This document shows, one piece after another, positions 17,347 through 46,367 of a stretch of 64,000 bases of DNA (the stretch's first letter is position 1; the number at the start of each line of letters is the position of its first letter). A program made the translations under genes and the position numbers. The notes under the pieces are model-generated. The model made no database searches. It worked only from the letters and a program-made list of their open reading frames with translations, and was not told the DNA's origin. The DNA comes from Calothrix membranacea FACHB-236 (GTDB taxonomy: Bacteria; Cyanobacteriota; Cyanobacteriia; Cyanobacteriales; Nostocaceae): contig NZ_JACJPX010000016.1 in NCBI RefSeq assembly GCF_014696315.1, positions 1 to 64,000 of the forward strand. The letters are read 5' to 3'.

Positions 17347-19839
17347 TTATGGTTTCTGGGCTTTTTCTTGCAGGAGCGATCGCCAATCAGCAATAGCCTT
17401 TTCTGTCCACAACCAATTTTGACTTAATTTATTTACTTGGAAATTTATCGGATCATCCTTAATCACCATTTGGCGCAGTTTTAGCGCTTCATTCATATAT
17501 TGATACTGTTTCTCATTTGATTGATTATATGCAGATTTATAAAGTCCTAGAGCCAATCCAGCATAAGAAGTCAAAGCCTCTTTAGGAGCGGCACTTTTAG
17601 TAGTTGTTTGTTGTTTGAGAGCTAAATTTAAAGCCTTAAACCAAGAATCATTAGCTCGATTTAAGTTTTCTTCGGCGTAATAGGCAAATCCCAAAGCATT
17701 ATTATATACAAATGAATCTGGGTCTGCTTTTACAGCACTTTCCCAATAACGGCGGGCATCATCAATACTATATTTTTTATCTTTTAACTGCACAGACTGC
17801 CAAGCTAATCTTCCTTTAAAAAAGTTTACAGATGGATTATCAGCTTGCTTTGCTGGTACAAGATTTAACGCTGCTTGCGCGGGAGGAAGCGCGCCACGGT
17901 TAAGTAATTCTTCTACAGCCTCTAGCCCTGCTTGTAAGTCGCCTTGGCTCAATTTTTCCGTAGCGGTAGCAGTCACAATTCCAGTTGCAGCTGTCTTTAA
18001 ATCTACAGGAGGTTGGGCTGTGATTGACTGGGTAGGAATTGGTGGTATGGGAGGTAATTTTGTAGCTTGATGATTTTGCCACCAATTGACACCCACAAAA
18101 ACTGCGATCGCGCTTGCTCCTACGATTCCTACAATCGGCCAAATCTGGCGACGCTGGCGGCGTTTTGGCGAATATGGTTGTGAGCGTCCATAAGAATTAT
18201 TATTCCAATTACCATCAAAACTCGTAGATGATTCATTTGATGTTTCCGGTTCTTCTTCCCAAAAGCTGGCTTCTTGATCTGACGTAGTCAATTCTTGAGA
18301 AAATTGTCTTCCCCGCAGGCTATTGTCATTCAACTGGGGCACAAGTTCCGCCATCATGGAAGATGATTGCTCAGAAGTTCCTTTCTGGGTATCTAGTTGG
18401 CGAAACAAATCTGAAACTAGCGCAGAATCTTCTGCGTAGCTTGGGTCATCATCGTACTCTATTTCATCAACTAGATCGCCCCAAGTATCTTCACCAAGCC
18501 AGTCTAGCCCTGAAGAGTCACGAGCTAAACCAGAAGGGATCATATCCTCCATTAAAGACATATCAGTTTCATCTGCAACATCAGAGTACATTGCTGCAGG
18601 ATTTGCCCTTAAAGCTGGATTATACTCATTGAGTGCTTCCGCACTCTCAGGAATTTCTGGGCTGAGAAAACCATCAAATTCTGGCTGGAGATATAAAATT
18701 GGTAACGCCCAGTACATGTGGTGAGAACCGTAGGCAGATATTAGCCCTTGGCGTACCCGACTCACGCACAAATCTACAGGATATCCTTGATTGAGGTTGC
18801 GGTAAAACAATTGTGTCAAAGTCAGCGCTACTTCATCAGGAATACGTTCTGACATTGCTAAGACGCTTCTAATTCCGCGTTTAACTAGGCTTTCTGTGAG
18901 ATTACGTTCTCCAGTTTCTTCAGTAGTATCGCTGTTAGCGCTGTATGCTCCCAAACAGGAGTTAAATACTGCCATTTGGATATTATTATTGACGAGCAAA
19001 CCTGCGAGATCGTCACCACTTAAGGTTTCCGTCAAGCCAGTTCTGCTACTAACTAAATAAATTTCACCACCGTTAGCTCCAAGGTTGCTATGACCGGAGT
19101 AGTGTAGAACATGATATCGCCCTTGTTCTAGGGCTTGCGTTAATTCTTCGCGCCCTGGTTGGTCTAGTAAGGTAAGTTCAATATCGGGCAGATAATTACC
19201 ACCTTCCGTAGGGCGTGGTATATGACGGTGCAGTTCAGCTTGTAATTTAATAGCCTCATGCTTGAGCAAATCTAGGCGGACTTTATCTGTAGGTGAGGCA
19301 ATCACCATTAATACTTTGATACCACCTTCTTCTAAGGGTTGTGGTATGTTTTTTGATGGCAACCGAGATGCTGGCAGAGTTCCACTTTGGTAGCGAGAAA
19401 AAGCGACATAGGGCCCGGTGGCGAGAGGGCGATCGCTTGCGTGCATGACTTCCCAAGGTAGCCGCGCTAACCTAGTATCTTTCAACCCCAAACGTAGACG
19501 CAACACCTGCTGGTGATTTTGGGCGATACCTTGTGCTGTAATCCAACTATCTCTGAGAGTGCCTTGAAACAGTGCATTATATAGTTGCTGACCCAACGCT
19601 ACTAAATTGACTGAGTTTCTGGCAATGTCGCTTTCAATTCCGCCAAAGGCGATCGCATCTCCTTGCAACACTGACATCAACGGATCGTTCATCAAATGCC
19701 CAGCAGCGGCTAACCAATCAGCTACAGGCCAAGTCACCAATTCTTCTGCTAATGGCACCCCAGGCGCGACTTGTTCCGTCCGCACCAAGTAGTCATTTTG
19801 CCCTACTGGGGTTACGGAAATGTGAAATTCCTGGGTCAC
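17347..19839 (-). CDS. hetF: HetF, CHAT-domain caspase-like protein of heterocyst development
   Basis: 830 residues from a GTG start at 19839 with GAGGAG five to six bases upstream. The first 390 residues form a CHAT (caspase-like) domain with the His of LHYSGHSNLG (about His250) and the Cys of AVFNSCLGAY (about Cys295). Next is an acidic, low-complexity region (400-550), one membrane segment after a basic cluster (RRQRRQIWPIVGIVGASAIA, about 562-587), a proline-rich linker and a TPR-like C-terminal domain (NNALGFAYYAEENLNRAN). In Anabaena HetF is needed for heterocyst formation and affects HetR and PatA levels. Its place next to the nsiR1 array supports the identification strongly. The known target of NsiR1 is the hetF 5' leader. 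Confidence 0.92.
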   Translation of the reverse strand: MTQEFHISVTPVGQNDYLVRTEQVAPGVPLAEELVTWPVADWLAAAGHLMNDPLMSVLQGDAIAFGGIESDIARNSVNLVALGQQLYNALFQGTLRDSWITAQGIAQNHQQVLRLRLGLKDTRLARLPWEVMHASDRPLATGPYVAFSRYQSGTLPASRLPSKNIPQPLEEGGIKVLMVIASPTDKVRLDLLKHEAIKLQAELHRHIPRPTEGGNYLPDIELTLLDQPGREELTQALEQGRYHVLHYSGHSNLGANGGEIYLVSSRTGLTETLSGDDLAGLLVNNNIQMAVFNSCLGAYSANSDTTEETGERNLTESLVKRGIRSVLAMSERIPDEVALTLTQLFYRNLNQGYPVDLCVSRVRQGLISAYGSHHMYWALPILYLQPEFDGFLSPEIPESAEALNEYNPALRANPAAMYSDVADETDMSLMEDMIPSGLARDSSGLDWLGEDTWGDLVDEIEYDDDPSYAEDSALVSDLFRQLDTQKGTSEQSSSMMAELVPQLNDNSLRGRQFSQELTTSDQEASFWEEEPETSNESSTSFDGNWNNNSYGRSQPYSPKRRQRRQIWPIVGIVGASAIAVFVGVNWWQNHQATKLPPIPPIPTQSITAQPPVDLKTAATGIVTATATEKLSQGDLQAGLEAVEELLNRGALPPAQAALNLVPAKQADNPSVNFFKGRLAWQSVQLKDKKYSIDDARRYWESAVKADPDSFVYNNALGFAYYAEENLNRANDSWFKALNLALKQQTTTKSAAPKEALTSYAGLALGLYKSAYNQSNEKQYQYMNEALKLRQMVIKDDPINFQVNKLSQNWLWTEKAIADWRSLLQEKAQKP

Positions 19840-19973
19840 AACTTCTCCTCTTCGCCTCCTAAATCAGGTTTGAAACGCGAAAGTTTCAAGTCGATTTTTC
19901 GCTTCTTCTGATACCTTAGATGCATCTTCCCACTGAATGTTTCTGAATGCTCGTTATTTTGCTTTTTTCAGGG

Positions 19974-20077
19974 ACTTCTAGAAAACAAATTATCCAATTT
20001 ACTCAGATAATTTTTGTCTTTCTCTCCTCTATCCTCTGCCAAGACGGCGATAAGATATTTTTTCAGTTGGCAGTCCC
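19974..20077. repeat. Dispersed ~105-bp repeat, copy A (in the hetF leader)
   Basis: ACTTCTAGAAAACAAATTATC ... AGTTGGCAGTCCC. A related copy is at 33369-33480 (ACTTCCAGAAAATAAATTA ... AGTTGGAATTCCC). The two share both ends and a central CTCCTCTGC-rich part. This copy lies between the hetF start and the first nsiR1 promoter, so it may be part of the hetF 5' untranslated region. Confidence 0.6.
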
Positions 20078-20131
20078 TTAGGCTTTTACAACTTTATCCG
20101 GATTAGTTGACATCTGGGTAGAACAGTTTAT

Positions 20132-20193
20132 TGGTAGATGCACCTTGATCTTCGACTCCCCTAATTGGCGAATGCCCATTAGGGGATTTTTTT
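20132..20193 (+). ncRNA. nsiR1: NsiR1 copy 1 (hetF-proximal, most diverged)
   Basis: Promoter TCCGGA at 20097-20102. The body reads TGGTAGATGCACCTTGATC, so the usual CCCTGATAACT is altered. Terminator stem CCCCTAAT/ATTAGGGG, then seven T. Being nearest to hetF and antisense to its presumed leader, it is the copy most likely to pair fully with hetF mRNA. Confidence 0.85.
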
Positions 20194-20218
20194 ATGTTGG
20201 TGAATCAACTTAACTTAT

Positions 20219-20280
20219 TCCGACACAAGCATTCTTTACTGGAGAAGGTGGTAAATCAAACCACTTTTCTGTGGTTCGTT
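20219..20280 (+). other. Possible decayed nsiR1 unit between copies 1 and 2
   Basis: The gap between copies 1 and 2 is about one unit too long. Inside it TTCCGAC (20218-20224) resembles TCCGGA, and TGGTAAAT begins at 20249, which is 117 bases after copy 1 and 127 before copy 2, in register with the array. A small stem AACCAC/GTGGTT follows, but there is no T-run. Confidence 0.35.
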
Positions 20281-20375
20281 GACTAGCATCCTCTGGGTTG
20301 GTTTTGACACACAACTAAAATACACATTTTAGTAAATTTATCCGGAGCTTGACGGTTCGCCTAAGAACAATTAAG

Positions 20376-20436
20376 TGGTAGATGCACCCTGATAACTAAC
20401 TCCCCTGGTAGGCTAATGTTTACCAGGGTTTTTTTT
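20376..20436 (+). ncRNA. nsiR1: NsiR1 copy 2
   Basis: TCCGGA at 20341-20346; body with CCCTGATAACTAACT; terminator CCCTGGTAG...TACCAGGG with eight T. Confidence 0.9.
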
Positions 20437-20514
20437 CGGCTTTGCAAATCACAATAAAGTTAATACATAGTGAATTTGATCCGGATGAGGCTTGTTATCT
20501 AGAGAACAATTAAA

Positions 20515-20575
20515 TGGTAGATGCACCCTGATAACTAACTCCCCTGGTAGGCTAACACTTACTGGGGTTTTTTTT
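20515..20575 (+). ncRNA. nsiR1: NsiR1 copy 3
   Basis: TCCGGA at 20480-20485; conserved body; terminator CCCCTGGTAG...TTACTGGGG with eight T. Confidence 0.9.
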
Positions 20576-20644
20576 GAAAAAATAGACCGCCACTATTGTG
20601 ACAATTTCATCCGGAGCTTACTTATTTCTTCTAGAACAATTAAG

Positions 20645-20706
20645 TGGTAGATGCACCCTGATAACTAACTCCCCTGGTAGGCTAACACTTACTGGGGGTT
20701 TTTTTT
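20645..20706 (+). ncRNA. nsiR1: NsiR1 copy 4
   Basis: TCCGGA at 20610-20615; the unit from the end of copy 3 to this RNA is nearly identical to the next unit, which indicates a recent duplication. Confidence 0.9.
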
Positions 20707-20775
20707 GAAAAAATAGACCGCCACTATTGTGACAATTTCATCCGGAGCTTACTTATTTCTTCTAGAACAATTAAA

Positions 20776-20837
20776 TGGTAGATGCACCCTGATAACTAAC
20801 TCCCCTAGCTGGTTGGTACCCACTAGGGGATTTTTTT
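20776..20837 (+). ncRNA. nsiR1: NsiR1 copy 5
   Basis: TCCGGA at 20741-20746; conserved body; a different terminator stem, CCCCTAG/CTAGGGG, then seven T after an A. Confidence 0.9.
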
Positions 20838-20907
20838 GTTGTAAACACTAATACACCTCTAGGAAAAATTGATCCGGATAAGGGTAGCTGCACTCAGAAG
20901 ATTTAAA

Positions 20908-20966
20908 TGGTAGATGCACCCTGATAATCCACTCCCCTAGTTGGCTGCCACCACTGGGGGTTTTTT
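20908..20966 (+). ncRNA. nsiR1: NsiR1 copy 6
   Basis: TCCGGA at 20873-20878; body has CTGATAATCCACT instead of CTGATAACTAACT; terminator CCCCTAGTTGG...CCACTGGGGG with six T. Confidence 0.9.
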
Positions 20967-21038
20967 GTGTTTAGGTAATAGCCACCCACAAAGTTAAAAA
21001 TTGATCCGGATAAGGGTAGCTGCACAAGAAGAGTTAAG

Positions 21039-21096
21039 TGGTAGATGCACCCTGATAACTCACTCCCCTGATTATTAAAATCGGCGGGGGTTTTTT
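21039..21096 (+). ncRNA. nsiR1: NsiR1 copy 7
   Basis: TCCGGA at 21005-21010; terminator arms CCCCTGATT and AATCGGCGGGG with six T. Confidence 0.9.
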
Positions 21097-21167
21097 ATTT
21101 TTTAGCCATAATTAGCGATCGCGTCAAAATTGATCCGGATAAGGGTAGCTGCACAAGAAGAATTAAA

Positions 21168-21224
21168 TGGTAGATGCACCCTGATAACTCACTCCCCTGA
21201 TTATTAAAATCGGTGGAGTTTTTT
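21168..21224 (+). ncRNA. nsiR1: NsiR1 copy 8
   Basis: TCCGGA at 21134-21139; terminator as in copy 7, but the 3' arm is AATCGGTGGAGT, pairing with ACTCCCCTGATT with one mismatch. Confidence 0.9.
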
Positions 21225-21284
21225 ATTTTTTAGCCATAATTCCAAATTGATCCGGATACAGGTATTAGCACAAGAAGAGTTAAA

Positions 21285-21341
21285 TGGTAGATGCACCCTG
21301 ATAACTCACTCCCCTGATTATTAAAATCGGTGGAGTTTTTT
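21285..21341 (+). ncRNA. nsiR1: NsiR1 copy 9
   Basis: TCCGGA at 21251-21256; RNA sequence the same as copy 8, with a slightly different promoter spacer (CAGGTATTAGC). Confidence 0.9.
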
Positions 21342-21414
21342 ATTTTTTAGCCATAATTAGCGATCGCGTCACAAATTGATCCGGATACAGGTAGCTGCAC
21401 TCAGAAGATTTAAA

Positions 21415-21472
21415 TGGTAGATGCACCCTGATAACTAACTCCCCTGGTAGGCTAATGCTTACTGGGGTTTTT
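21415..21472 (+). ncRNA. nsiR1: NsiR1 copy 10
   Basis: TCCGGA at 21380-21385; returns to the CCCCTGGTAG...TTACTGGGG terminator type, with a short T-run. Confidence 0.9.
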
Positions 21473-21539
21473 ATTTTTCAACAAGCGATCATGTCAAAAA
21501 TTTATCCGGAGCATCGCAATGTCTTCTAGAACAATTAAA

Positions 21540-21598
21540 TGGTAGATGCACCCTGATAACTAACTCCCCTGGTAGGCTCAAACCTACTAGGGTTTTTT
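21540..21598 (+). ncRNA. nsiR1: NsiR1 copy 11
   Basis: TCCGGA at 21505-21510; terminator CCCTGGTAGG...CCTACTAGGG with six T. Confidence 0.9.
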
Positions 21599-21672
21599 AT
21601 TATTGAAAAAACAACAATCTCCCTTTATCAAAATTTCTCCGGAAGATTGCATTTTAATTTAGAACAATAAAT

Positions 21673-21732
21673 TGGTAGATGCACCCTGATAACTAACTCC
21701 CCTGGTAGGCTCATTCATACTAGGGGTTTTTT
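21673..21732 (+). ncRNA. nsiR1: NsiR1 copy 12 (last)
   Basis: TCCGGA at 21638-21643; terminator CCCCTGGTAG...ATACTAGGGG with six T. No further unit follows. Confidence 0.9.
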
Positions 21733-22119
21733 GAGGAGATAATTTGCCTCTAGCTGCCCACTGATAATTGATGAGGCATATATTCTAGCACAAAAAATGC
21801 GCTGTGAAATTAAATTTCTGATATTGTGTCTTAGCGATCGCTTATCTTGCTGTCACCGTTAATTACATCTATCTTATCATTATTTTTCGATACTCGTTAT
21901 GCCTTTCCCTGACTAAATTTCTACCTTTTTAGGGGTTATTAGGCTGGTACATATTGTTATTCCACAATATATCTGCCAAATTGGCATAATTTTTAATTAT
22001 TTTTCTATAATTTAGCTTGAGTAAGGCTAGTATTTATTACTATTTGCCGCACCATGCTGCTAAGATTCAACATTTTCTGCTAAAATGATTTGCCTATATC
22101 CAAATAGTCGCACAGTCAA
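21733..22119. other. Intergenic region after the nsiR1 array, upstream of the thioredoxin-like gene
   Basis: 387 bases. It holds a HIP1 site, a small stem ATATTGT/ACAATAT (21951-21957, 21964-21970) and the palindrome listed next. No gene is seen. Confidence 0.5.
21974..22012 (+). promoter_or_regulatory. Possible promoter with a 13-bp palindrome for the thioredoxin-like gene
   Basis: TGCCAAATTGGCA (21974-21986) is a perfect palindrome around a central A/T. Its right half TTGGCA could serve as -35 and TATAAT (22007-22012) as -10, although the 20-base spacing is long. The palindrome could be an operator; the factor is unknown. Confidence 0.35.
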
Positions 22120-22443
22120 ATGAATTTAGCAGTAATTAAGTTCTCTTCGGAAGAATGCGGCATTTGCCACAAAATGTCATTTTATGACCAAAAGGTAGCT
22201 GAAGAACTCGGTTTGCAATTCATTGATGTCAAAATGCAGGATACAGCTACTTATCGCAAGTATCGCAAGATTTTGTTAACTCAGTATCCCGATAAATCAG
22301 AAATGGGATGGCCTACCTACATTCTCTGCGATTCTCCTGAAGGAGAGTTTCAGATTATTGGTGAAGTTAAAGGAGGTCATCCTAAAGGTGAATTTAGAAG
22401 CCGTTTACAAGAAGTTTTAGCTTCCGCAGCTAATCAGAACTAA
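22120..22443 (+). CDS. Thioredoxin-family protein (CGIC active site)
   Basis: 107 residues with a thioredoxin fold. The redox motif is CGIC in SSEECGICHKMSFYD, with one more Cys before the final part (LCDSPEG), and the cis-proline loop is MGWPTYIL. The usual WCGPC is replaced by CGIC, so redox potential and partners probably differ from housekeeping thioredoxin. There is no signal peptide. The C-terminus (KGGHPKGEFRSRLQEVL) matches thioredoxin's last helix. It ends 14 bases inside the convergent 77-residue gene. Function is general disulfide exchange; the target is unknown. Confidence 0.82.
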   Translation: MNLAVIKFSSEECGICHKMSFYDQKVAEELGLQFIDVKMQDTATYRKYRKILLTQYPDKSEMGWPTYILCDSPEGEFQIIGEVKGGHPKGEFRSRLQEVLASAANQN

Positions 22444-22825: not shown

Positions 22826-24676
22826 CTAAGCTACTTGTCTTTCGTTTTTTAACGCTAACCGAGCTAATCCATAACAAAGCAGGGCATTAGCAATCAAGAA
22901 AACGCGAGCTAAGTGGCTACTGCCCAAACCCCAAACAGTAGGATCGCAAACGGCACTGACTGTTAAACAAGCTGCTACACCAAGGGTAGAGCCAATGGCA
23001 AACCATTTGCCGCTAGGATGTCCCAGCAGTAATGCAACGAGAACTATAGGAATCAATACGCTGGCAAACAATGGATTTAAATCGCCAGTTCCTTGCAGAC
23101 TGTTACCTAATTCGGGAATGGAACTACCCAAAAGCCGGAAAGGCCATTGAGGAAGGTCAAAGATATAAATTCCCTTGAGGAAGAATAATCCTGAACTACC
23201 AGCAATTAAACCACTGGATAAAGACCAACTCCAGGTGAAAGGAAAGTAAACTCTTAAAAACCAAGCTAGTAGATAAGAACCCAGTACCATCAAAATTTTG
23301 GGTAACAGCGCTACAGCACCGCCATCAATCCAAAATCCAGGGTTGAGATAGCCGTTATCCCTTAACCAACGGAAGAAATCAGAGAAGCTAATTTGACCTT
23401 CAGTGGCAAGTTTAACAGCGGCTTCAGCATTTAGTAGCCCAGCACCGTAGTAGTTCAAACCATCCTCTTGAATAACTCTGGAAGACTGTTTGAGGACTTT
23501 TAAAACTTCATCCGGGTCTGTGATACCTTTAGCTCTGATTAATGCCGCTACACCAGCAACGTGGGGAGATGCCATACTTGTACCTTGGAAGCCAAGGAAA
23601 ACCCCTTCACCTTGCTCATTGATGGTTTCTTGCAGAATCTTGCCAGCATCGCTACCACCAGGGGCGGAAATATCAACCCCAGCACCAAAGTTGGAATATG
23701 GGGCTTTTTCACTGTCTGGGCCGTATGCTGAAACACCGATTACATGGGGATAACGCGCTGGATAGCTAGCACCGTTAGCGTTTTCGTTACCAGCCGCAGC
23801 TACAATCACAACACCTTTATTGTGGGCATAGTCAATAGCTTGCTTCATTAACTGACTTTCACCGCCACCACCCAAGCTCATATTGATGACATCTGCACCT
23901 TTATCAGCAGCAAATTTAATCGCTTCGGCAATATCGGCAACTGTACCACCACCATAATCATTCAATACCTTCAAGGGCATGAGATTGGCTTCGTAGGCAA
24001 TACCAGCTACACCATATTTATTATTGGTAGCTTGGGCAATAGTACCGGCAACATGGGTACCATGACCGTTATCGTCTTTGGCTTCTTCTCTATCGTTAAC
24101 GAAATCGTAGCCTTTAACAAATTTCGTTTCATATAAGTCGCGCACGCGAGTGATCCCAGTGTCAATGACAGCAACCGTAATGCCACTACCCTTGGTTTGA
24201 CTCCACGCGCCTTCAATGCCAATATTATGCAAGTTCCACTGCTTACTGTAATACTGGTCATTGGGGCCAGTTAATGAAGGACTTACATTCTCTTCATCTT
24301 CATTGGGTTTTAAAAATTCTCCCAAATAAGCAGCTTTACCCGATTGAGGAATCTTGTAAATATAATTTGGCTCGATAAATTCTGTAGCCGACTTGAATTT
24401 GGATTTTTGCAGTTCTTTCAGCCGTTGGCGATCGCCTTTGATAATATACACATTATCTTTTGCTGAAAATTTATTATCGAGTTGGGGTGTAACCTGGTAT
24501 TGTTGAGCGATCGCTTGCAAATCTTTCTCTACTACCTCTTTAGGTATATCTTCACGAAAATCAAGCAGAATCGTCTCAAACTCACCCTTGGCTGCTAGTC
24601 CCTGAAAATTGAGGAACCCAAATATAGCAGCCCCCAGCCCAATGAGAAACAAGCAAAATAATATAAGCCTTCTCAT
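22826..24676 (-). CDS. Subtilisin-like serine protease (S8) with C-terminal membrane domain
   Basis: 616 residues. The N-terminal hydrophobic segment (LILFCLFLIGLGAAIFGFL) is a signal or anchor. Residues 35-110 resemble an S8 prodomain of fervidolysin type. The catalytic domain has Asp172 (VAVIDTGI), His205 (DDNGHGTHVAG), Asn297 (AAAGNENANG) and Ser367 (GTSMASPHVAG), a complete triad with oxyanion Asn. After about residue 435 come several hydrophobic stretches (ILMVLGSYLLAWFL, SSGLIAGSSGLFFL, SVLIPIVLVALLLG, ARVFLIANALLCYGLA) that look like four or more membrane helices, which is unusual for subtilases. It is probably a membrane-tethered extracytoplasmic protease. Confidence 0.9.
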   Translation of the reverse strand: MRRLILFCLFLIGLGAAIFGFLNFQGLAAKGEFETILLDFREDIPKEVVEKDLQAIAQQYQVTPQLDNKFSAKDNVYIIKGDRQRLKELQKSKFKSATEFIEPNYIYKIPQSGKAAYLGEFLKPNEDEENVSPSLTGPNDQYYSKQWNLHNIGIEGAWSQTKGSGITVAVIDTGITRVRDLYETKFVKGYDFVNDREEAKDDNGHGTHVAGTIAQATNNKYGVAGIAYEANLMPLKVLNDYGGGTVADIAEAIKFAADKGADVINMSLGGGGESQLMKQAIDYAHNKGVVIVAAAGNENANGASYPARYPHVIGVSAYGPDSEKAPYSNFGAGVDISAPGGSDAGKILQETINEQGEGVFLGFQGTSMASPHVAGVAALIRAKGITDPDEVLKVLKQSSRVIQEDGLNYYGAGLLNAEAAVKLATEGQISFSDFFRWLRDNGYLNPGFWIDGGAVALLPKILMVLGSYLLAWFLRVYFPFTWSWSLSSGLIAGSSGLFFLKGIYIFDLPQWPFRLLGSSIPELGNSLQGTGDLNPLFASVLIPIVLVALLLGHPSGKWFAIGSTLGVAACLTVSAVCDPTVWGLGSSHLARVFLIANALLCYGLARLALKNERQVA

Positions 24677-41927: not shown

Positions 41928-43402
<1,475 letters not shown>

Positions 43403-43676
43403 AGTAGATTGTACCACCTTGCTTATAGCTGTGAGCAAGGCTGTTTACAATTCCTGAAGTGTATGGAATAGAGATTGTTATTTATGGATCACAATAGGGC
43501 ATGGGGCATTGGACACTGGGCATGGGAAAGACAGATTTTCATGCGTGCTGGTGTACACAATTCATGATAGCTGTTGCGGATGAGAGGGATGAAGAGACAA
43601 GGGTAAACACCAAACACCCAAAACCAATTACCAATTACCCATTACCCATTACCGAATGACAAATAACAAACACCAA
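43403..43676. other. Region between the thiC riboswitch and rluE with heptamer repeats
   Basis: It holds the thiC promoter (not resolved) and, at 43624-43653, AATTACC and TTACCCA heptamer repeats. GGTGTACACA near 43549 resembles part of the MITE ends at 13300, but without an inverted partner. Confidence 0.5.
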
Positions 43677-44267: not shown

Positions 44268-44630
44268 GCCCTTATTGTATTGCTGAAAAAAATCATTTAT
44301 TAAGCATAACAATTAGTTAATTATTTATAAGCATTTGTGCTTATTCTCTATTCAGAGATTACTAACTCATACCTTCCGGATTTGGATACTATCATCCTGT
44401 ATATAAAAAATTACTTTTTTCATGACAGGAATATCCAAAAAAATGTATTTTGCTAAACATATTGAGCTATTTTTTTGCATTCAAAACTTAAAAATTAAAT
44501 AAGGATGATTTTTGTTACATAAGTTTTTACTTGTACCCTTTGACAAAAATCAAGCCAGAAGCAGTATAATAATCTTTTTTTATTCCTGCCCATATCCACA
44601 TCAACCCTTGGGTGCAAGTTATTCAGTCTT
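44268..44630. other. Intergenic region between rluE and the PAS histidine kinase gene
   Basis: 363 AT-rich bases. A small hairpin ATAAGCA/TGCTTAT (44327-44344) lies 60 bases after rluE. One isolated TCCGGA occurs at 44375-44380. No gene is seen. Confidence 0.45.
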
Positions 44631-46367
44631 ATGAGCCGTAATCAGCAATCGATCTGGCATAAAAATCGCCATCAACAAGATATCTTGTCTGCAACATCTG
44701 CGCGCTTAGAACTTGTGTCTGAACGAGCCGAAGATTTAGAACTTTGCACAGCAGAAACCCTGCTTCCTACCCAAGAGGAACTGACTTTGTATCGTAGGCT
44801 TTATGAAAATATTCCGTCTGTATATTTCAGTTTGGATATAACAGGAATAATTTTGTCTGTAAATAAATTTGGTGCCAACTGTCTCGGTTACAGCGTTGAA
44901 GAATTGATTGATAAGTCGGTTTTGAATTTATTTGAACAGTCAGATAAAAAAAGATTATCTGATGCTTTAGGGGAATTAGTCAAAACTTCATCCCCTAGTG
45001 AAGTATCTAATTGGGAATTTCGGTTAAATTGTCCAGAGAGCAAGATTGTATGGGTAAAGGTTGTAGCAAGGTTATTACCTGCTGATGATGGAATTTATCC
45101 TCTAGAGTTAGAGTCCAACCCAACAGATAAACACCATCAAAAGCATCCGCAAATTCTAATGGTATTGGAAGATATCACTACTCATAAACAAGCAGAAGAT
45201 GCTTTACGAGAAAGTGAACAAAGGTTTCATTCTATGGCCAATACTGCACCAGTAATGTTATGGATGACAGGATGTGACGGACTTTTTACCTTTTTTAATC
45301 AATCCTGGTTAAAGTTTACTGGACGTAGCATGGAGCAACAGCAAGGTTTAGGCTGGCTAGAAGGAGTACATCCACAAGAGCAAGATTTCTGTCAAGAAAT
45401 CTATGATTCCGCTTTTCATGCTAGAGCCAAATTTGAGATGGAATATCGGCTAAAACGCCATGATGATGAATATCGTTGGATTCTAGATACGGGTATTCCG
45501 AGGTTTACCCCTAATGGTAAATTTGTCGGTTACATTGGCTGCTGTATAGATATTACAGAGCGCAAATCAGCAGAAGTTGCTCTCAAACATAGTCAAGAAT
45601 CAGTGCAAGCACAGTTAGAGGAAATGGAAAGCCTCAATCGCCTTAAAGATGAATTTCTCAGTACTGTATCGCACGAACTACGCACGCCATTAACTAATAT
45701 GAAAATGGCAATTCAAATGTTAGGCATAGCACTCAATCAAGAGCAGAACTTTTTGTCCGAGATGGACAAGCCACAAGCAGAACGCTCTAAAGCATCTCGT
45801 TATTATGAAATTTTAGATAATGAGTGCGATCGCGAAATAAATCTCATTAGTAATTTTCTAGATTTGCAAAGGTTAGATAATAACACTAAGCCTTTGGTAC
45901 TCGAAACTATTCAAGTACAGCAATGGCTCTGGCGGGTAGTAGAACTATTTAAAGCACGTAACCGCAACTCTTGTCAGCAAAAGTTACGCCTGAGCGTTGC
46001 TAGCAATCTGCCTTTATTAACTTGCGATCCATTCAGTCTAGAGCGTATTTTAATAGAACTGCTCACCAACGCTTGTAAATTTAGCCCTCCTGATGCAGAA
46101 ATTACAATTTCTGCTCAAATGAAATCGCAAAATATGCAATTCCAGGTAATTAATTCGGGTGTAGAAATTCCTAGTTGCGAATTACCACGCATTTTCGATA
46201 AATTTTATCGCATTCCTAGTAATGACCCTTGGAAGCAAGGTGGCACGGGTTTAGGTTTAGCACTAGTACAGAAACTTACCAAACTTTTAGGAGGAACAAT
46301 CGAAGTTGAAAGTGGGTCAAACCGTACCTGTTTTGCGATTCAATTACCATTGAGTAATGAGGTGTGA
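44631..46367 (+). CDS. PAS-domain sensor histidine kinase
   Basis: 578 residues, no membrane segment. Two PAS domains (about 52-195 and 205-325; the second has its PAC part YRWILDTGIPRFTPNGKFVGYIG) precede a HisKA domain with H-box FLSTVSHELRTPLTNMK (about 350) and a HATPase domain: N-box LERILIELLTNACKFS, F-box IFDKFYRIP and G2 GGTGLGLALV. The G1 box is reduced (FQVINSGVEIPSCEL, with Ser in place of the usual Asp-Gly), which could lower activity. No regulator gene is adjacent. Signal unknown. Confidence 0.9.
   Translation: MSRNQQSIWHKNRHQQDILSATSARLELVSERAEDLELCTAETLLPTQEELTLYRRLYENIPSVYFSLDITGIILSVNKFGANCLGYSVEELIDKSVLNLFEQSDKKRLSDALGELVKTSSPSEVSNWEFRLNCPESKIVWVKVVARLLPADDGIYPLELESNPTDKHHQKHPQILMVLEDITTHKQAEDALRESEQRFHSMANTAPVMLWMTGCDGLFTFFNQSWLKFTGRSMEQQQGLGWLEGVHPQEQDFCQEIYDSAFHARAKFEMEYRLKRHDDEYRWILDTGIPRFTPNGKFVGYIGCCIDITERKSAEVALKHSQESVQAQLEEMESLNRLKDEFLSTVSHELRTPLTNMKMAIQMLGIALNQEQNFLSEMDKPQAERSKASRYYEILDNECDREINLISNFLDLQRLDNNTKPLVLETIQVQQWLWRVVELFKARNRNSCQQKLRLSVASNLPLLTCDPFSLERILIELLTNACKFSPPDAEITISAQMKSQNMQFQVINSGVEIPSCELPRIFDKFYRIPSNDPWKQGGTGLGLALVQKLTKLLGGTIEVESGSNRTCFAIQLPLSNEV

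What the first reader, a model, noticed from the sequence alone, without database searches (positions are those of the whole stretch)
17347..21732. hetF with a head-to-head, 12-copy nsiR1 array, all promoters with TCCGGA at constant distance
Each of the twelve RNAs has TCCGGA 34 or 35 bases before TGGTAGATGCACC (seen), which is the DIF+ promoter element reported for heterocyst-specific, HetR-dependent genes (known from Anabaena PCC 7120). The array points away from hetF, so copy 1 would be antisense to the hetF leader. This ties the window to heterocyst control and gives a natural set of 12 parallel promoters for one RNA.
Basis: partly seen in the sequence, partly recalled or inferred. Interest (0 to 1): 0.8.

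Follow-up and report, generated by a model that had tools for sequence, protein, structure and literature searches.

The report
NsiR1 small-RNA array beside hetF
This is the known set of twelve tandem small-RNA genes that helps cyanobacteria make nitrogen-fixing cells, and following it through the genome led to a thirteenth, single relative at another conserved place that may be older than the array.

Summary
Twelve copies of TGGTAGATGCACC lie at 20132-21685, each 34 or 35 bases (start to start) behind a TCCGGA. All twelve pass Rfam's cut-off for NsiR1. The gene they point away from is hetF by NCBI's curated model. The system is already described in Nostoc PCC 7120, also with 12 copies (PMC9045159, PMC8406250), so the array is a new member of a known kind.

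What I add: (1) Copy 1 carries its own seed, present in 12 of 14 hetF leaders and in 0 of 86 other copies. (2) A MITE-like repeat, with 27 matching stretches in this genome (itself included), lengthens this hetF leader by about 112 bases. (3) A 13th NsiR1 with the same promoter spacing lies elsewhere, between cobM and lgt. Its first 19 bases occur exactly once in each of 71 sampled family genomes and beside cobM and/or lgt in 66 of 70 loci examined. The promoter-RNA unit tracks HetR: 211 genomes have both, 5 the unit only, 25 HetR only, 147 neither. No expression was tested.

The parts
17347..19839 (-). hetF, 830 aa, CHAT domain
   Evidence: NF045509 1500.7 bits, cut-off 1200; Pfam CHAT 4.9e-28
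19840..20206 (-). inferred hetF leader; the start point near 20206 is set by homology to -256 in PCC 7120 plus the 112-base insertion, not measured
   Evidence: alignment of 14 leaders; PMC8406250 passage
19968..20080 (.). MITE-like dispersed repeat inserted in the hetF leader, inverted ends AGGGACT/AGTCCCT (ends approximate)
   Evidence: 27 matching stretches in own genome at E <= 0.001, itself included; eight copies printed side by side; present in 3 of 14 leaders
20097..20193 (+). copy 1: DIF1 box 20097-20102, RNA 20132-20193; divergent seed CCTTGATCTTC; opposite to the inferred hetF leader
   Evidence: 59.6 bits RF02399; signature conserved
20341..20436 (+). copy 2: DIF1 20341, RNA 20376-20436
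   Evidence: 62.5 bits
20480..20575 (+). copy 3: DIF1 20480, RNA 20515-20575
   Evidence: 68.5 bits
20610..20706 (+). copy 4: DIF1 20610, RNA 20645-20706
   Evidence: 77 bits
20741..20837 (+). copy 5: DIF1 20741, RNA 20776-20837
   Evidence: 69.3 bits
20873..20968 (+). copy 6: DIF1 20873, RNA 20908-20968
   Evidence: 66.2 bits
21005..21098 (+). copy 7: DIF1 21005 (34 bases), RNA 21039-21098; variant hairpin
   Evidence: 53.9 bits
21134..21224 (+). copy 8: DIF1 21134 (34), RNA 21168-21224; same RNA as copy 9
   Evidence: 47.7 bits; copies listed
21251..21341 (+). copy 9: DIF1 21251 (34), RNA 21285-21341
   Evidence: 47.7 bits
21380..21476 (+). copy 10: DIF1 21380, RNA 21415-21476
   Evidence: 64.7 bits
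21505..21601 (+). copy 11: DIF1 21505, RNA 21540-21601
   Evidence: 66.5 bits
21638..21734 (+). copy 12: DIF1 21638, RNA 21673-21734
   Evidence: 64.8 bits

Best explanation
The array is nsiR1. It is twelve independently promoted, terminated RNAs of about 60 nt, switched on in cells that start to become heterocysts through DIF1 promoters (HetR-dependent, more directly HetZ-dependent by the literature). Copy 1 lies inside the hetF leader and acts on it in cis as an antisense RNA, lowering HetF in the differentiating cell. The other copies act in trans with a different seed. Shown here: sequence identity, promoter spacing, predicted terminator hairpins, orientation, and conservation of copy 1. 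Inferred from PCC 7120: expression, cell type, and repression of hetF. The array is the hetF-side branch of a wider NsiR1 family. A second member sits singly on the opposite strand in the lgt-cobM gap, and the hetF array looks like a tandem expansion of one older copy (inference).
For: 12 of 12 Rfam matches. Constant DIF1 spacing. All 13 sequences folded (12 window copies and the cobM-side one) form a 3' hairpin followed by a run of U; 11 of 13 also form the GGU/ACC mini-hairpin, copies 1 and 6 fold their 5' part otherwise. 13 of 13 HetF loci from named genomes carry NsiR1 on the opposite strand. Copy 1 seed in 12 of 14 leaders, 0 of 86 other copies. Outside the family, 12 of 30 hetF-like loci have 1-3 head-to-head copies, all pointing away from hetF. 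PCC 7120 literature: PMC9045159, PMC8406250, PMC3141674 (passages). Second locus.
Against: No transcript data for this strain. The folding z-scores of copies 3, 6 and 12 are weak, -0.29, -0.05 and -0.29. PMC8406250 saw little change of hetF-promoter GFP when nsiR1.1 lost its -10 box by replacement or deletion. Only one HetP-family protein was found in this genome, and copy 4 pairs with its start region no better than shuffles (252 of 300 as low), so the known trans target alr3234 is not shown here. In 2 of 14 leaders copy 1 is not intact (L016 lost, L018 eroded). Outside the family 18 of 30 hetF-like loci show no NsiR1 within the fetched flank.
Confidence: 0.88

Rival explanations
1. The conserved copy 1 sequence is kept by the hetF leader (its own folding or processing) and not by the antisense RNA.
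For: Any cis-antisense RNA matches its target whatever the sequence, so conservation of the seed in 12 of 14 leaders needs another reason; the hetF-proximal leader is also conserved.
Against: DIF1 and its spacing before copy 1 and a terminator-like end are conserved too in the 12 loci. PCC 7120 work reports repression by NsiR1.1 (PMC9045159, citing a 2020 paper I could not read).
Confidence: 0.15
2. The extra copies of the array are redundant repeats kept by recombination, with only copy 1 and one or two others functional.
For: Exact-pattern totals in 71 family genomes range from 1 to 13 with median 4, cobM-side copy included where it fits; inner copies vary between genomes and L016 has five identical ones.
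Against: Promoter box and spacing are kept in 12 of 12 copies here although hairpins have drifted; the first 30 bases are identical in copies 2-5 and 10-12.
Confidence: 0.3
3. The cobM-lgt RNA is an unrelated terminator or attenuator of the lgt-cobM operon that happens to resemble NsiR1.
For: It lies in the gap of two co-directional genes on the other strand.
Against: Its first 16 bases equal those of array copies 2-12, Rfam scores 51.9 bits over the cut-off of 39, and it carries DIF1 at 34 bases. In HetR-negative genomes the RNA was found in 1 of 20 cobM loci although lgt lay beside cobM in 12 of them.
Confidence: 0.07

Closest known systems
NsiR1 array of Nostoc (Anabaena) sp. PCC 7120 upstream of hetF
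   Same: 12 tandem copies, opposite to hetF, each with a DIF1 promoter, copy 1 divergent (PMC9045159, PMC8406250 passages)
   Different: In PCC 7120 copies 3-9 are identical; here the inner copies differ and only copies 8 and 9 are the same RNA. The hetF leader here holds a repeat of about 112 bases; whether PCC 7120 has it was not examined.
Nodularia spumigena CCY9414 array
   Same: 12 short repeats upstream of hetF (PMC3610870 passage)
   Different: sequence not compared here
Limnospira indica PCC 8005 RNA162
   Same: 57-nt RNA said to resemble NsiR1 in a HetR-bearing genus without heterocysts (PMC8400943 passage)
   Different: its locus is not given in the passage; not compared here
PatX, ancient partner of HetR
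   Same: DIF1 promoter, and reported in all HetR-containing cyanobacteria (PMC7761841 abstract and passages)
   Different: a peptide gene, not an RNA

Membership tests
NsiR1 (Rfam RF02399) | sequence and structure score over the family's gathering score | tested here: met
   12 of 12 window copies and the cobM-lgt copy. Among 14 control genomes one (E. coli) had a match under the cut-off and none over it.
NsiR1 (Rfam RF02399) | nitrogen stress-induced, heterocyst-specific transcription | not testable with these tools
   needs RNA data
DIF1 promoter class | TCCGGA near -35 | tested here: met
   12 of 12 copies, 34-35 bases start to start before the RNA
DIF1 promoter class | activity depends on HetR/HetZ | not testable with these tools
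   hetR itself is present in the genome; hetZ was not searched for
HetF | full-length match to the curated HetF model | tested here: met
   1500.7 bits, residues 1-826 of 830
NsiR1.1 cis-antisense of hetF | copy 1 within and opposite to the hetF leader | tested here: inconclusive
   orientation and conserved position met; start site of hetF not known in this strain
NsiR1.4 repression of alr3234 | pairing at the start of a hetP-like mRNA | tested here: inconclusive
   one HetP-family gene found; pairing no better than shuffles; it may not be the alr3234 orthologue

The most novel reading that the evidence does not exclude
NsiR1 is an ancient HetR-linked RNA family rather than a hetF appendix. 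It has two conserved homes, each opposite to a gene it may silence in cis: the hetF leader, and the gap of an lgt-cobM operon. The single lgt-cobM copy is the near-invariant core member, and under HetR/HetZ control it represses cobM (vitamin B12 pathway) or lgt-cobM read-through in cells that change state, with or without heterocysts. The famous 12-copy array is a late, lineage-specific tandem expansion of the hetF-side copy; similar expansions occurred on the cobM side in other lineages.
Probability: 0.4. Interest if true: 0.65.

Novelty: new member of a known kind. Interest (0 to 1): 0.45.

Why it matters
The array itself confirms in another genome a regulator known from one model strain. 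The 13th copy matters more. If it is transcribed, NsiR1 depletion or probe experiments have one more source to consider, and a single-copy locus can be deleted cleanly, which a 12-copy array cannot. The co-occurrence with HetR in genomes outside the array-bearing family gives a handle on what HetR did before heterocysts existed.

Tried and rejected
Plasmid collection with the array DNA: no match. HetP-family protein as the known trans target: only one in the genome, no convincing pairing with copy 1 (266 of 300 shuffles as low) or copy 4 (252 of 300). The cobM-side RNA reached -19.5 kcal/mol, but 36 of 300 shuffles were as low, so I do not claim it. A covariance model over hetF-side and cobM-side RNAs together was not built, because their stems do not share alignment columns. 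I looked for a name for the cobM-lgt RNA: 'NsiR2' gave 4 papers, three unrelated by title and one cyanobacterial review, PMC6316151, which I did not open. NsiR1 together with cobM, lgt or prolipoprotein: 0 papers of the held library. The terms lgt, cobM, precorrin and prolipoprotein do not occur in the main text of PMC4734099. Of the 32 papers that hold 'NsiR1' I looked at passages of eleven. The primary NsiR1 papers (Ionescu 2010, Mitschke 2011, Muro-Pastor 2014, Brenes-Alvarez 2019 and 2020) were not read; look-ups of PMC4030482 and PMC3250118 failed. The second locus may be described there. Five HetR-negative genomes with a TGCGGA box come from one genus, so they count as one event. The HetR association is clumped by family, so the Fisher value is not a true probability.
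Full report
The observation. The window holds 12 exact copies of TGGTAGATGCACC on the + strand, each preceded by TCCGGA at 35 (nine copies) or 34 (copies 7-9) bases start to start. Successive copies are 244, then 117-139 bases apart. cmscan finds NsiR1 (RF02399) at all 12, 47.7-77 bits. The neighbouring ORF 17347-19839 (-) is HetF by the curated model.

What is known. In Nostoc PCC 7120, 12 tandem nsiR1 copies lie upstream of hetF. Each has its own DIF1 promoter. Copies 3-9 are identical, copy 1 is antisense to the hetF 5' UTR and inhibits its translation, and NsiR1.4 represses alr3234, a hetP-like gene (PMC9045159: outline, abstract and passages). The hetF start site is at -256, nsiR1.1 lies after it, and replacing or deleting the -10 box of nsiR1.1 changed hetF-promoter GFP little (PMC8406250 passages). 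Nodularia also has 12 repeats (PMC3610870 passage). [quoted passage not shown] So the array is a known system in a new genome.

Copy 1. I aligned the leaders of 14 hetF loci (window plus the 13). Copy 1 carries TGGTAGATGCACCTTGATCTTC in 12 of 14; none of the 86 other copies found by the exact 13-mer carries it. Within the first 27 bases, copy 1 of those 12 loci differs from its own array by 4-6 bases at least, but from the first copy of the other loci by a median of 0-1. The exceptions are L016, where copy 1 is lost, and L018, where an eroded remnant remains. In 8 of 14 loci copy 1 starts 180-182 bases from the hetF start; in L021 it is 188, in the window and L009 293 and 292, in L017 359; the first intact copies of L016 and L018 lie at 295 and 493.

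The leader insertion. The extra 112 or so bases in the window and in L009 (more in L017) are a dispersed repeat. The 131-base query 19955-20085 has 27 matching stretches in this genome including itself; some cover only part of it. Eight copies side by side show ends like AGGGACTTCCA and TGGAAGTCCCT, several of them imperfect, so it looks like a MITE. It is absent from the other 11 leaders.

The 13th copy. The whole genome has 13 NsiR1 matches, all over the cut-off. The 13th, L022:2825-2876, 51.9 bits, has TCCGGA 34 bases upstream. It lies between ORFs on the opposite strand that match cobM (TIGR01465, 340.8 bits) and lgt (TIGR00544, 260.3 bits). Its linker and hairpin differ from the array's. 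The exact 19-base start TGGTAGATGCACCCTGGTT was found in 169 of 388 genomes of the order, and in 71 of 71 sampled genomes of the window's family, once in each; the reversed pattern was found in none. Of 70 loci with it that I examined, 66 have cobM and/or lgt in the flank, on the opposite strand in every case. The four without are L046 (contig end 133 bases away), L069 (a different RNA), L072 and L103. All 20 of the family's loci that I fetched have both genes. For 25 chosen sequences, the 9-pair hairpin pairs in 99.1% of cells with 4 pairs changed on both sides (6 cells; 1 of 500 shuffles reached 4 pairs). The 5' mini-hairpin never varies and so gives no evidence.

Anchored test, not chosen by the motif. 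I took 30 HetR-positive genomes of 30 genera from other families; several I had already seen. cobM was found in 28, and NsiR1 beside it in 16 of 28 (one of them, L163, diverged and without DIF1); 12 of 28 lack it. In 20 HetR-negative genomes cobM was found in 19 (20 loci), and NsiR1 in 1 of 20 loci. I estimated the lgt-cobM gap from alignments, so it is approximate. Where lgt lies next to cobM without the RNA it has a median of -3.5 bases (14 loci, 11 HetR-negative and 3 HetR-positive; range -37 to 104). With the RNA it is 120 (13 loci outside the family, one of them HetR-negative) and 199 (20 loci in it). Two co-directional genes with such a small gap look like an operon, so the RNA would be antisense to its spacer; this is inference. 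hetF-like matches came from 30 of 30 of the HetR-positive genomes, none over the model's cut-off and at least two only partial or paralogous (L142, L143). NsiR1 was head-to-head in 12 of 30 (one, L125, diverged and without DIF1; in L121 it lies about 930 bases away), with 1-3 copies, all pointing away from hetF; 18 of 30 show none.

HetR. The exact DIF1-NsiR1 pattern and HetR (PF03574) in 388 genomes: both 211, pattern only 5, HetR only 25, neither 147; outside the window's family 140, 5, 25, 147. Counting the 19-base start as well, outside the family: 149, 10, 16, 142. Three of the five pattern-only genomes are 81-89% complete, two (G144, G174) are 97-99%. Of 64 loci with the 19-base start from HetR-positive genomes, 59 keep TCCGGA at 34-36 (of the other five, L071 has a run of N there); of six from HetR-negative genomes 1 does, and the five with TGCGGA are one genus. 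One HetR-bearing non-heterocystous genus, Limnospira, is reported to have an NsiR1-like RNA (PMC8400943 passage).

Expansion. Six genomes outside the family show tandem copies on the cobM side: five in L029/L065, four in L032/L145, three in L104, three in L062 (at a contig end), two in L099, and four in L165, two of them with changes in the core. The hetF side holds at most three in the 30 genomes tested outside the family, against 3-12 by exact match in the 14 hetF loci, some cut by contig ends. This fits independent tandem growth from single ancestors. Exact-pattern totals in 71 family genomes have median 4, range 1-13; the window's genome shares the maximum. Draft assemblies may collapse arrays, so these may be lower bounds.

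Mechanism. Most likely, early proheterocysts switch on the 12 promoters through HetR and HetZ. Copy 1 pairs along its whole length with the hetF leader and lowers HetF; the other copies act elsewhere in trans. Expression and repression are taken from PCC 7120. The trans target could not be confirmed here. The role of the cobM-side copy is unknown; a cis effect on lgt-cobM is my most novel reading.

Noticed in passing
L022:2825-2876 (G000:C1:213824-213875): Thirteenth NsiR1, single copy, DIF1 at 34 bases, between cobM and lgt on the opposite strand; its 19-base start is in 71 of 71 sampled family genomes.
   Followed up: yes
window 19968-20080: MITE-like repeat with inverted ends in the hetF leader, 27 matching stretches in the genome; in 3 of 14 hetF leaders.
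   Followed up: partly
L026, L028: In two genomes of one family NsiR1 lies next to an ORF that reads like a methionine aminopeptidase (name from my reading, no family search); L028 is an array of four, period 191.
   Followed up: no
L051-L055, L038: HetR-negative family f18: NsiR1 kept between cobM and lgt with TGCGGA in place of TCCGGA in five loci of one genus; L038 keeps TCCGGA but the RNA is altered.
   Followed up: partly
window 44375-44380: TCCGGA followed by an AT-rich stretch, about 250 bases before a PAS/histidine-kinase-like ORF at 44631 (family from my reading); possible DIF1 promoter.
   Followed up: no
window 22120-22443 and 22826-24676: The small ORF (relative beside NsiR1 in L034) and the S8 protease (relatives in L024, L033, L039) keep the neighbourhood of the hetF-side NsiR1 in other families.
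   Followed up: partly
G000:C136:7827-8024: Only one HetP-family protein found in this 8.8 Mb genome by two searches, where PCC 7120 is recalled to have four.
   Followed up: partly
window 43308-43404 (-): TPP riboswitch just upstream of the ORF at 41928-43301, which reads like thiC (my reading).
   Followed up: no
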